The notes under the pieces are model-generated. The model had not been told where the DNA came from. It ran no database searches and worked only from the letters and a program-made list of their open reading frames with translations. Both the position numbers and the translations under genes were made by a program. This document shows positions 1-38,833 of a stretch of DNA of 38,995 nucleotides, one piece after another. Source of the DNA: a virus; the IMG/VR virus record IMGVR_UViG_3300044972_000830, positions 1 to 38,995 of that record. One strand, written 5' to 3'. How positions within the stretch are numbered: the first letter of the stretch is position 1; every line of letters starts with the position of its first letter.

Positions 1-1319
1 CTGACAAGATTGTCACAAACAAACTTTACAGTACTAACCTAACACAGCCAACACAGCACTATAGATTAGAATTAGATACCAACGGTGTTGTTGTATTACC
101 AGATGGTAGTATTATCAATGGCAGCACCATTAGAGGTGTTGCTGGCACTGGGGAATTAAACTATACAGGTATTACCATTGGTCCTAATATCAATGATGCT
201 GAAAAGACCTGGATGTGGGTTGATCATGAAAATGCTTACGTTAGCACCAACAACGCTGCACATACATGGACCTTTGGCAATGATGGTAAGTTAACATTAC
301 CACTGGGTGCCGGTATTAGTGAAACTGCATCAAGTCCGGGACTGTTAAAAAGAAAATATAGTGGGACTTTTGTATTAGATCCAACTTGGTTTGCAGCCAA
401 TGCTGGAAATTTGGTTGAAACTACTACAATTAATAGCACTATACAAAGTACGGATTTAGAAGTGTTCAATGCTTTTAGTTTCGAATTTACAGGATACTTT
501 GTTCCTCCAACATCAAACCTTTACACATTCAAAGCACATGCCGATGAGACTTTTATATTCTGGATTGGTGACAAAGCACTGTCAGGGTATACCTACGCCA
601 ACAAAGATATGTATGGTGATTACAATGGTACAAGTCCGGAGCAACAAGTACAATCTTTTACCATTGCCTTAACCGCTGGACAGTTTTATCCTATTAGAAT
701 TCAATGGGGTAATAGTGCGGGGTGGGGACAACTTGATACGTTTACTTGGGCTAGGTTTGGGCAAGCAGACTCAGCAGACTTTAGCGGACTTATATACACT
801 GCCAACACTGGAGCAGCAATAGTATCAGTCAGTGATAATAAATCTATTGTATTACGTACTGATAACGACATAACAAATAATTGGAACTTTGCCCCAGATG
901 GCAGTTTAACTTTCCCAGACAACACAGTTCAATCCACTGCATACGTGGCACCAACTACTGGCAATTCTACAATAGTTTCTGATCCGGAAGGCACCACAGT
1001 TAGTAGAAACGGTATGACTATCAGAGTCACATCAGCGGGCATGATACAAATGTCCTTTGACAGTGCAATTAACGTTAAAGGACGCAGTTCAATTAACAAT
1101 ACTGATTCGACAGTTATTGCATCACCTAACGGTGTTACTACCATTGGAACATGGTATAATATCGGTGCAGTATTGGCCGAAGGAGATCATTTAACAGCTA
1201 CTATTGTGGACGAAAGTTATCATCATATTTACAGACTAACTGCAATAATTATTCAGAAAACTACAACCCCTGGACAAGAAATTGTTGTATCATACGCAAT
1301 TATTGAGCAGTTACAATGA
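1..1319 (+). CDS. Tail-fibre-like structural protein with PA14/GLEYA-like domain (5' end outside window)
   Basis: The reading frame is open from base 3, well upstream of the first ATG (213), so the gene starts before the window; 438 codons are visible. Two copies of a short module seen in the next fibres occur here: WTFGNDGKLTLP at about 267 and WNFAPDGSLTFPDNTVQ at about 882. Between them, about 340-790, lies a segment with aromatic and Asp residues (FTGYFVPP, YTFKAHADETFIFW) typical of PA14/GLEYA lectin-like domains that bind glycans. The C-terminal 130 residues are beta-rich without a recognised family. It is followed after 40 bp by another fibre. Role in receptor binding is inferred from domain and neighbours; the PA14-type call is from pattern only. 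Confidence 0.72.
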   Translation, partial: DKIVTNKLYSTNLTQPTQHYRLELDTNGVVVLPDGSIINGSTIRGVAGTGELNYTGITIGPNINDAEKTWMWVDHENAYVSTNNAAHTWTFGNDGKLTLPLGAGISETASSPGLLKRKYSGTFVLDPTWFAANAGNLVETTTINSTIQSTDLEVFNAFSFEFTGYFVPPTSNLYTFKAHADETFIFWIGDKALSGYTYANKDMYGDYNGTSPEQQVQSFTIALTAGQFYPIRIQWGNSAGWGQLDTFTWARFGQADSADFSGLIYTANTGAAIVSVSDNKSIVLRTDNDITNNWNFAPDGSLTFPDNTVQSTAYVAPTTGNSTIVSDPEGTTVSRNGMTIRVTSAGMIQMSFDSAINVKGRSSINNTDSTVIASPNGVTTIGTWYNIGAVLAEGDHLTATIVDESYHHIYRLTAIIIQKTTTPGQEIVVSYAIIEQLQ

Positions 1320-37873: not shown

Positions 37874-37900
37874 AAAAAGCACCCCTGGGGTGCTTTTTTT
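37874..37900. terminator. Bidirectional rho-independent terminator
   Basis: Stem AAAAGCACCC / GGGTGCTTTT with a 3-nt loop, T run on the + side and A run on the other. It separates the convergent genes ending at 37872 and 37899. Confidence 0.88.
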
Positions 37901-38222
37901 AATGCCAATTGCCATTCATACAATGCAGTAATTCATGTCCAAGTACATGCATACTTGTAGTCTTTGGTACAATAATAGTGCATTGAGTTTTGTCAGTATT
38001 CCAAAAAGCACAACTGTTTACTCCGTAGCCAAACCCCCCAAACCCCCTAGTTTTGCTTTCCTTTTCACAAATACCTTGCACATTATCTGTGGCAATGATT
38101 GTGGTTTGAATTTTAGTGCTGTTCACAGGGAATTTTCGATCAGCTTTGTCCCATGCCTCAAAGGTCTGAGCAGACACAGTATTTGAACAAATTAACAAAC
38201 TAATTAGTAAAGATTTTTTCAT
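37899..38222 (-). CDS. Small secreted HExxH protein, 107 aa
   Basis: A signal peptide (MKKSLLISLLICSNTVSAQ, cleavage near residue 19) leads to a short domain ending HVLGHELLHCMNGNWH. HELLH is an HExxH zinc motif with a further His seven residues later, and four Cys could form disulphides. The spacing is not the metzincin one (HExxHxxGxxH), so it may be an unusual zincin or a zinc-binding protein. Similar short HELLHC proteins occur in phages. Its promoter at 38283-38255 is a perfect sigma70 consensus, so it is likely made early and exported to the periplasm. Ribosome site is poor. Confidence 0.65.
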   Translation of the reverse strand: MKKSLLISLLICSNTVSAQTFEAWDKADRKFPVNSTKIQTTIIATDNVQGICEKESKTRGFGGFGYGVNSCAFWNTDKTQCTIIVPKTTSMHVLGHELLHCMNGNWH

Positions 38223-38227
38223 ATGTG

Positions 38228-38283
38228 TTGCTTTGTGTAGCTAAGTATGTTATAATTATATAATAAATTTAAAGGATTGTCAA
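38228..38283. promoter_or_regulatory. Symmetric divergent sigma70 promoter
   Basis: On the - strand TTGACA (38283-38278), a 17-nt spacer and TATAAT (38260-38255) form a perfect promoter for the secreted HExxH gene. On the + strand TATAAT (38251-38256) with a weak TTGCTT (38228-38233), also 17 nt apart, serves the 38283 gene. The two -10 boxes overlap in the palindrome TATAATTATA. Confidence 0.75.
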
Positions 38284-38546
38284 TGAGTACACGCATGTAT
38301 GGACCCGAAGAAAAAGCCAAATTAGAACGTTTAATCAACGAAGGCAGTACCGTTTTACGTGAAATTGAGGACTTAAAAGAAGGGCTCAAAGAAACGGTTA
38401 AAGCAGTAGCAGAAGAATTGGAAGTTAAACCCAGTATTATCAACAAGGCTATTGCTATTGCACATAAAGACAATTGGAAAGAACACGAACAAGCGTGGAA
38501 TGACATTGAGATGATTTTGGGAGTAACCAATAGGTTACCAGAGTAA
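38283..38546 (+). CDS. dsbA: DsbA-like dsDNA-binding protein, 87 aa
   Basis: ATG 38283 follows AAAGGA by 6 nt and is preferred to an earlier in-frame TTG. The product is all-helical and charged: YGPEEKAKLERLINEGSTVL, EDLKEGLKETVKAVAEEL, KPSIINKAIAIAHKDN. Its length and its EELxVxxxxxNKxxxxxHK core fit T4 DsbA, which binds late promoters and enhances late transcription. The A of its ATG is the first base of the opposite-strand -35. The next gene overlaps as TAATG. The family call is from memory of homologues and is moderately sure. Confidence 0.6.
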   Translation: MSTRMYGPEEKAKLERLINEGSTVLREIEDLKEGLKETVKAVAEELEVKPSIINKAIAIAHKDNWKEHEQAWNDIEMILGVTNRLPE

Positions 38547-38833
38547 TGGATGTTATCAAAAGTATATATAGTTGGGCCAAAAATGATTACAATGAATGGC
38601 CTACTCGTTTTACTTTAGAAATCACAGCATGGTTCATGAGTCTCGGCTGTTCTCTAACATTAGCGGCTGCGGCAACTGATCCATTGTTCCTTTATCTCTA
38701 TCCAATCTTTATTGCACAATGTGCAATCTTTGGGTGGGCCGCTTGGACACGTAAGAGTACAGGCATGGTAGCTAACTACCTACTACTAGTCACTATTGAT
38801 CTAGTAGGCTATGTTAGACTACTAAATACGTAA
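38546..38833 (+). CDS. Small multi-span membrane protein, 95 aa
   Basis: Three hydrophobic stretches (about 26-44, 47-67, 73-92) with little in between (FTLEITAWFMSLGCSLTLAA, YLYPIFIAQCAIFGWAAWTR, MVANYLLLVTIDLVGYVRLL) make an inner-membrane protein. The pattern resembles half of a small transporter-like membrane family seen in T4-like phages; no substrate can be given. It is coupled to the DsbA-like gene. Its last codons contain ACTAAATA (38821-38828), a possible late box for the next gene. Confidence 0.58.
   Translation: MDVIKSIYSWAKNDYNEWPTRFTLEITAWFMSLGCSLTLAAAATDPLFLYLYPIFIAQCAIFGWAAWTRKSTGMVANYLLLVTIDLVGYVRLLNT

What the first reader, a model, noticed from the sequence alone, without database searches (positions are those of the whole stretch)
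38228..38283. Symmetric divergent promoter with a shared TATAATTATA -10
The - strand promoter is a perfect TTGACA-17-TATAAT and its -10 overlaps the + strand TATAAT in a palindrome. Symmetric -10 boxes are known to give divergent transcription in bacteria. Here the two genes, a secreted HExxH protein and a DsbA-like late regulator, would be in mutual competition. The - strand -35 even uses the A of the + strand ATG.
Basis: seen in the sequence. Interest (0 to 1): 0.5.

Follow-up and report, generated by a model that had tools for sequence, protein, structure and literature searches.

The report
Overlapping two-way promoter in a phage
In a freshwater bacterial virus, two neighbouring genes that point in opposite directions appear to start from one short stretch of DNA that RNA polymerase could read either way but probably not both ways at once, and related viruses keep this arrangement although the letters around it change.

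Summary
TATAATTATA lies at 38251-38260. The minus strand carries TTGACA-17-TATAAT (38283 to 38255), the only 12/12 promoter in the window (0.05 expected). The plus strand carries TTGCTT-17-TATAAT, whose -35 matches only 3/6.

Relatives make it more than a consensus match. Of 32 distinct intergenic sequences between this divergent pair (secreted HExxH gene / dsbA), 17 have -10 boxes overlapping by 2-3 bp, one is ambiguous, and 14 have two separate promoters. The minus promoter is 10/12 or better in all 32. Among distinct loci with TTGACA over the dsbA start, 0 of 26 without the divergent gene have a -10 for it; 12 of 17 with the gene do. Between two overlap subtypes the leader differs by 7 bp, yet a different TTGACA stands at 17 bp.

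Best reading: a bidirectional sigma70-type promoter, formed where a promoter-gene-terminator cassette abuts the dsbA promoter. Competition between strands is plausible but untested. The exact palindrome is not conserved (and also occurs where no divergent gene is seen), the predicted start-site spacing (15 bp) is not the preferred 18, and DsbA's late role is uncertain even in T4.

The parts
38278..38283 (-). -35 of the minus (HExxH) promoter, TTGACA; its first base on the minus strand pairs with the A of the dsbA ATG
   Evidence: invariant in 12 of 12 distinct full-length class A sequences
38255..38260 (-). -10 of the minus promoter, TATAAT, 17 bp from its -35
   Evidence: perfect in 11 of 12 distinct class A sequences, TAAAAT in the other
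38251..38256 (+). -10 of the plus (dsbA) promoter, TATAAT; positions 1, 2, 5 and 6 invariant in 12 of 12 class A sequences
38228..38233 (+). Degenerate -35 of the plus promoter, TTGCTT (3/6), 17 bp from the -10; class A members L096, L097, L100 and L164 have TTGACY with an 18-bp spacer
38251..38260 (.). Palindrome TATAATTATA formed by the two overlapping -10 boxes (2 bp shared)
38263..38263 (+). Predicted start site of the dsbA transcript (7 bp after the -10; inferred)
   Evidence: inference
38248..38248 (-). Predicted start site of the HExxH transcript (inferred), 15 bp from the plus start
   Evidence: inference
38272..38276 (+). Shine-Dalgarno-like AAGGA of dsbA
   Evidence: read by eye
38283..38546 (+). 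dsbA-like gene, 87 aa (Pfam PF11126 Phage_DsbA, 28.1 bits, cut-off 25; PHROG 639 'transcriptional regulator', PHROG 12534)
37899..38222 (-). Small HExxH gene, 107 aa, signal-peptide-like N terminus (by eye), HExxHCxxGxxH C terminus, four invariant cysteines in 45 relatives
   Evidence: no PHROG match and no Pfam match above cut-off for the window protein, no match in the phage collection
37874..37898 (.). Hairpin flanked by A and T runs between the convergent 558-aa gene (+) and the HExxH gene (-): terminator-like in both directions
38546..38833 (+). 95-aa ORF whose ATG overlaps the dsbA stop (TAATG); likely co-transcribed with dsbA (inference)
   Evidence: YwiC match 22.5 bits, below its cut-off of 25

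Best explanation
The site is a bidirectional sigma70-type promoter made of two promoters whose -10 boxes overlap. Host RNA polymerase bound in one orientation transcribes dsbA rightwards; bound in the other it transcribes the secreted HExxH gene leftwards as a single-gene unit that ends at a hairpin right after its stop codon. The HExxH gene is a promoter-gene-terminator (moron-like) cassette that in some relatives lies further off with its own separate promoter, and in this clade abuts dsbA so closely that each -35 lies in or next to the other gene's translation start. Because the two polymerase sites coincide, binding must be one at a time; with a consensus minus promoter and a degenerate plus -35, the default bias should be towards the HExxH gene. 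Shown from sequence: anatomy, conservation, the natural control, cassette structure. Inferred: that both start sites are used, which polymerase and sigma factor read them, steric exclusion and the direction of bias.
For: Plus promoter: 59 of 71 distinct dsbA upstream stretches (75 nt plus 6 of dsbA) score 10/12 or better; shuffles give about 1.5 of 71. Minus promoter: 11/12 or better in 27 of 28 distinct divergent regions, against 23 of 5600 simulated; both promoters with -10s overlapping by 2 bp or more in 16 of 28, against 58 of 5600 at the same thresholds. Wider set: overlap in 17 of 32 distinct sequences. Natural control: TTGACA over the dsbA start has a -10 of 5-6/6 at 16-18 bp in 12 of 17 distinct loci with the HExxH gene within 130 nt and 0 of 26 without it (none above 3/6). 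Register change: class B rows lack 7 columns of leader relative to class A, yet each class has a TTGACA, from different bases, 17 bp from its own -10. In class A the minus hexamers vary at 1 of 12 columns, other intergenic columns at 24 of 34. Terminator hairpin 0-3 nt after the HExxH stop in 28 of 29 distinct loci next to dsbA, 4 of 6 with dsbA further off, 0 of 13 with no dsbA in the fetched stretch; 7 of 400 random 120-mers. TTGAC-16..18-TATAAT type sites are enriched in five records holding relatives of either gene: 110 against 11 for the reversed pattern.
Against: No transcript data. The plus promoter is 9/12 here with a 3/6 -35 and is among the 12 of 71 below 10/12, so plus activity may be low or need a factor. 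Part of the minus -35 is held by the dsbA start codon; columns and sequences are not independent, so the probability (2e-4) is nominal. 14 of 32 distinct sequences do without overlap, and symmetric -10s also occur with no divergent HExxH gene seen (L046). Start-site spacing of 15-16 bp is inside the published 7-25 bp range but not at its preferred 18, 10 or 23. The host and its sigma factor are not known.
Confidence: 0.75

Rival explanations
1. Two ordinary promoters brought together by genome compaction. Both fire, but the overlap has no regulatory consequence because collisions are too rare. (Same anatomy as the best explanation; denies that competition matters.)
For: 14 of 32 distinct sequences have the same two genes with separate promoters, so overlap is not needed; basal competition was negligible in five E. 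coli bidirectional promoters (PMC12825309).
Against: The minus -35 is consensus here, and in the same paper improving one -35 greatly reduced the opposite transcript; overlap persists through a leader change.
Confidence: 0.4
2. Only the minus promoter works in this clade. The plus TATAAT is a by-product of the palindrome, and dsbA is read from elsewhere or needs a phage factor.
For: Minus is 12/12 and almost invariant; plus is 8-9/12 with a 3/6 -35 in the TTGCTY subclade.
Against: dsbA has a strong plus promoter at this place in 59 of 71 distinct relatives; plus -10 bases 1, 2, 5 and 6 and a TAAGTA block in the spacer are invariant in 12 of 12 class A sequences; the plus-strand gene upstream ends at a hairpin.
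Confidence: 0.15
3. The plus element is a phage late promoter (T4 type) rather than sigma70.
For: dsbA in T4 is linked to the late factor gene 33 (PMC2988020 passage); TATAATAAAT at 38259 looks a little like TATAAATA.
Against: No TATAAATA in the window; that stretch differs in the other class A sequences; most relatives have a good -35 at 17-18 bp.
Confidence: 0.04
4. Chance match in an A/T-rich intergenic stretch, no promoter function.
For: The 60-bp gap is 23.3% G+C, among the lowest 0.7% of 60-bp stretches of the window.
Against: Simulations, shuffles and the natural control in relatives.
Confidence: 0.02

Closest known systems
Bidirectional promoters of prokaryotes (Warman, Grainger and co-workers; PMC12825309: abstract, introduction, two results sections and discussion read; PMC10268837: passages; the 2021 paper was not held)
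   Same: Opposite-strand -10 elements overlap; predicted start sites 15-16 bp apart, within the 7-25 bp definition; divergent mRNAs; binding necessarily exclusive.
   Different: In a phage; spacing not the preferred 18 bp; -10s share only 2-3 bp; minus side is full consensus; starts are predicted, not mapped.
Overlapping divergent promoters of plasmid pLS20, Pc and Pr (PMC4207663, passages read)
   Same: Strong and weak divergent promoters on the same spot, one polymerase at a time.
   Different: There a dedicated regulator (RcoLS20) and DNA looping set the switch; no such regulator is identified here.
Complex bidirectional promoter region of haloarchaeal virus HF2 (PMC8707807, passages read)
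   Same: A conserved two-way promoter region in a tailed virus.
   Different: Archaeal promoters with repeat motifs, not sigma70 type.
Phage morons (definition read in a passage of PMC1524935: an ORF flanked by promoter and terminator)
   Same: HExxH gene has its own promoter, a terminator-like hairpin directly after the stop, and is next to dsbA in some relatives only.
   Different: No clear G+C contrast (37.0% against a mean of 41.2%; 19% of windows are as low); its promoter is fused with the neighbour's.
Promoter-early stem-loop (PeSL) cassettes of T4-type phages (named in a passage of PMC4503421; the primary paper was not held)
   Same: Host-like promoter and stem-loop next to shuffled genes; in another dsbA clade the -35 lies inside the terminator hairpin.
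   Different: Here the conserved block is a divergent promoter plus the signal-peptide codons.
T4 DsbA
   Same: PF11126 match; stop overlaps the next start, as T4 dsbA overlaps gene 33 (PMC2988020 passage).
   Different: The next ORF has no gene 33 match among the families listed; no divergent secreted gene is mentioned in the passage read.

Membership tests
Bidirectional promoter (Warman type) | -10 elements on opposite strands overlap, giving start sites 7-25 bp apart | tested here: met
   2-bp overlap in the window, predicted spacing 15 bp; 15-16 bp in the 16 overlapping regions
Bidirectional promoter (Warman type) | Both start sites are used in cells | not testable with these tools
   Needs 5'-end mapping
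Bidirectional promoter (Warman type) | Preferred 18-bp spacing with -7T and -11A reciprocally paired | tested here: not met
   15 bp by position; a preference, not a requirement, in the papers read
Sigma70-type promoter (minus strand) | TTGACA-17-TATAAT, conserved | tested here: met
Sigma70-type promoter (plus strand) | TTGACA and TATAAT at 16-18 bp | tested here: inconclusive
   -10 is 6/6, -35 is 3/6 here; 10/12 or better in 59 of 71 distinct relatives
Moron | ORF with own promoter and terminator | tested here: met
Moron | Insertion between genes that are adjacent in relatives | tested here: inconclusive
   L012 has a gene ending in nearly the same letters and then dsbA with no HExxH between, but the rest of the two genes aligns weakly
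Moron | Base composition unlike the rest of the genome | tested here: not met
   37.0% against a mean of 41.2%, SD 4.6
Phage DsbA (PF11126) | Profile match above the curated cut-off | tested here: met
   28.1 bits, cut-off 25
Zinc metallopeptidase (HExxH protein) | HExxH in a zincin fold | tested here: inconclusive
   Motif invariant in 45 aligned relatives; model mean pLDDT 84.6 has no Foldseek match at E 0.001; VIA rows weak, best Z 4.5 to glyoxalase-like chains, MMP-11, MMP-12, selecase and BlaR1 rows at Z 2.1-2.7

The most novel reading that the evidence does not exclude
The shared -10 is a two-way switch kept by selection in these phages: early in infection polymerase is drawn to the consensus minus promoter and makes the secreted HExxH protein; later DsbA, an A/T-rich DNA binder, or a phage change to sigma70 that weakens -35 use, tips the same site towards dsbA. 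That two overlap subtypes hold the minus -35 in different registers would be a record of selection for the overlap itself.
Probability: 0.12. Interest if true: 0.65.

Novelty: new member of a known kind. Interest (0 to 1): 0.42.

Why it matters
Bidirectional promoters have been mapped in bacterial chromosomes and plasmids. My listings showed a haloarchaeal virus region (HF2) and the plasmid pLS20 switch but no title or abstract start about such a promoter in a phage of bacteria; the held library lacks most subscription papers, so this is no proof of absence. This case comes with a ready comparative series: the same two genes with overlapping promoters in some phages and separate promoters in others, a consensus -35 on one side, and a leader change with the -35 in a new register. 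That allows a direct test of whether overlap itself is selected and whether two polymerases compete when one side is at full consensus.

Tried and rejected
T4-type late promoter for dsbA: no TATAAATA in the window and no conservation of the look-alike. Second plus TATAAT at 38259-38264 as the dsbA -10: no good -35 at 16-18 bp by eye, a leader of only about 12 nt, and TACAAT or unlike in the other class A sequences. Palindrome as the conserved unit: no; it is in the window, its identical contig (L082/L095/L190) and L195, but also in L046 without a divergent HExxH gene in view, in L160 and L167 near HExxH genes not next to dsbA, and once elsewhere in L185 (loci under 20 kb only). General enrichment of symmetric -10s in these phages: TTGAC..TATAATNNTA was found 24 times in 13 of 19 records, reversed control 4; in the five records it is 9 of 110 promoters, about what base composition gives by my rough estimate (not simulated), so the two-way design is not shown to be a genome-wide habit. 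Known family for the HExxH protein: no profile match in the PDB at E 1, none in Pfam above cut-off for the window protein, PHROG 27783 (no function) for 25 of 45 relatives but not the window protein, no close fold. HExxH relatives on bacterial MAG contigs (21 loci) were not followed to decide between host gene and misbinned phage.

Counting notes. One search cut off one base of the class B minus -35 and scored those low; one search corrected it. Scores carry a 0.5 bonus for a 17-bp spacer. One search lists 34 rows; L002 and L007 repeat L146 and L143 with another boundary, hence 32. The plus call for L180 is not the overlapping hexamer (TAACAT by eye), so it is counted as ambiguous. L195 is cut 52 nt upstream of dsbA and is left out. 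The 69 loci are 57 contigs plus the window, 11 contigs being fetched twice. Six loci have dsbA 634-1657 nt away and 17 have none in the fetched stretch. The list of loci with a divergent HExxH gene was set by hand. In one search columns were aligned without gaps, so 1-bp spacer differences inflate variation left of the plus -10. The odds of the compaction rival were lowered from 0.45 to 0.40 after reading section 15 of PMC12825309.

Full report
What was claimed.

What is there. The letters are as described. The minus promoter is the only 12/12 sigma70-type site with a 16-18 bp spacer in the window. The two -10 boxes share two bases. The plus promoter has a perfect -10 but a poor -35, TTGCTT (3/6). 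The 60-bp gap lies between a 107-aa gene with a signal-peptide-like start (by eye) and an HExxH motif on the minus strand and an 87-aa gene matching Pfam PF11126 (phage DsbA) on the plus strand. The minus gene ends at a hairpin that starts at its stop codon and also lies just after the convergent 558-aa gene. The window is a whole virus record of 38,995 bases, with PHROG matches to a clamp loader, PhoH, an ATP-dependent protease and, weakly, tail-fibre proteins.

Is it more than chance? Within the window a 12/12 site is expected 0.05 times. Relatives give stronger tests. One search kept 80 of 587 dsbA relatives; one search gave 13 and one search kept 80 of 175 HExxH relatives; one search gave 29 contigs by a dsbA-start pattern that does not include the promoter. 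Upstream of dsbA, 59 of 71 distinct stretches have a plus promoter of 10/12 or better, against about 1.5 in shuffles; the window (9/12) is among the other 12. Between HExxH and dsbA, 27 of 28 distinct regions have a minus promoter of 11/12 or better, against 23 of 5600 simulated.

Two architectures. Over 32 distinct intergenic sequences, 17 have -10s that overlap by 2 or 3 bp, L180 is ambiguous, and 14 have two separate promoters. Overlap comes in two subtypes. Class A (the window's, dsbA start ATGAGY) shares 2 bp, predicted starts 15 bp apart. Class B (L125, L130, L131, L132, L139; dsbA start ATGTCA) has TATACTATA, 3 bp shared, starts 16 bp apart. L151 resembles class B with a weaker minus -10. 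In an alignment of eight class A and four class B rows the class B rows lack seven columns of leader, which would have moved the minus -35 out of register; instead a different TTGACA, lying inside the dsbA start ATGTCAA, stands at 17 bp. Whether overlap arose once or twice I did not test with a tree.

A natural control. Many dsbA genes begin ATGTCAA, so TTGACA lies over the start by coding alone. With no HExxH gene starting within 130 nt, 0 of 26 such distinct loci have a -10 matching more than 3/6 at 16-18 bp; with it, 12 of 17 match 5 or 6 of 6, and the other five use separate promoters. This ties the minus promoter to the presence of the gene it would serve.

Conservation inside class A. 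Among 12 distinct full-length sequences the minus -35 never varies, the minus -10 varies at one column, and the plus -10 keeps positions 1, 2, 5 and 6; other intergenic columns vary at 24 of 34. The nominal probability is 2e-4, not corrected for relatedness. The exact palindrome is not the conserved unit: in class A only the window, its identical contig and L195 have it, and it also turns up in L046, L160 and L167 in other settings.

The cassette. A hairpin with a T run lies 0-3 nt after the HExxH stop in 28 of 29 distinct loci next to dsbA (L164 lacks it), in 4 of 6 with dsbA further off and in 0 of 13 with no dsbA in the fetched stretch; random pieces give 7 of 400. Promoters follow the same line: 10/12 or better in 6 of 6 distinct upstreams with dsbA further off, but in 1 of 14 (L163) with no dsbA near. 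The gene lies within 130 nt of dsbA in 26 of 80 loci, a few of which are too short upstream to tell. L012 has a gene ending in nearly the same letters as the window's 558-aa gene and then dsbA directly, though the rest of the two genes aligns weakly. Between the window and L088, dsbA (93%), gap (95%) and first 45 nt of HExxH (91%) are alike while the rest of HExxH is 57%, so the secreted part changes behind a fixed promoter and signal peptide.

Phage promoters in general. In five records holding relatives of either gene, TTGAC-type consensus promoters occur 110 times against 11 for the reversed pattern, so host-type promoters look like a normal signal there. A symmetric second -10 follows 9 of those 110, no more than I would expect from base composition.

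Mechanism and literature. Warman et al. 2026 (PMC12825309; abstract, introduction, sections 14 and 15 and discussion read) describe bidirectional promoters with shared -10 elements, preferred start-site distances of 18, 10 and 23 bp, and steric exclusion; basal competition was negligible in five E. coli cases, but improving one -35 greatly reduced the opposite transcript. PMC10268837 (passages) gives the 7-25 bp definition. By anatomy this site fits, and its consensus minus -35 is on the side where competition would be expected. Whether both strands fire and compete is not shown. A plasmid switch built on overlapping divergent promoters of unequal strength is described for pLS20 (PMC4207663, passages), and a bidirectional region for archaeal virus HF2 (PMC8707807, passages). 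DsbA in T4 is a low-affinity A/T-rich DNA binder of uncertain role (PMC2988020, passage). The function of the HExxH protein is open: a fairly confident model (mean pLDDT 84.6) finds no close fold; a small secreted zinc peptidase is my guess from motif and signal peptide.

Verdict. A real, conserved, overlapping divergent promoter arrangement, best filed as a phage member of the bidirectional promoter kind. Interest is moderate, raised by the natural series of overlapping and separate forms.

Noticed in passing
L017, L030, L032, L037 and others, upstream of dsbA: In the large dsbA clade without a neighbouring HExxH gene the dsbA -35 (TTGACC or TTGACT) lies inside the 3' arm of a terminator-like hairpin, so terminator and promoter are nested.
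   Followed up: partly
Record G001 (of L111) 87.0-97.7 kb and G004 (of L169) 0.2-7.2 kb: Arrays of consensus promoters, one every few hundred bases on one strand: perhaps early regions of small genes each with its own promoter.
   Followed up: no
window 37899-38222 against L083, L088, L092: Promoter and signal peptide are nearly identical while the mature HExxH protein is of a different type: allele swapping with a junction in the signal peptide.
   Followed up: partly
window 38240-38249 and dsbA upstreams: A TAAGTA/TAACTA-like block in the spacer of the dsbA promoter recurs across relatives; it may be an operator or a spacer element.
   Followed up: no
L160 upstream of HExxH: 14-bp palindrome GCTATAATTATAGC formed around the HExxH -10, with dsbA 634 nt away and another gene between.
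   Followed up: no
window 38544-38548: dsbA stop and the next start overlap (TAATG), as dsbA and gene 33 do in T4, but the next ORF looks hydrophobic, like a membrane protein.
   Followed up: no
L234-L254: Relatives of the HExxH protein on contigs binned mostly as Burkholderiales-type or Methylococcaceae bacteria: a hint at hosts, or misbinned phage.
   Followed up: no
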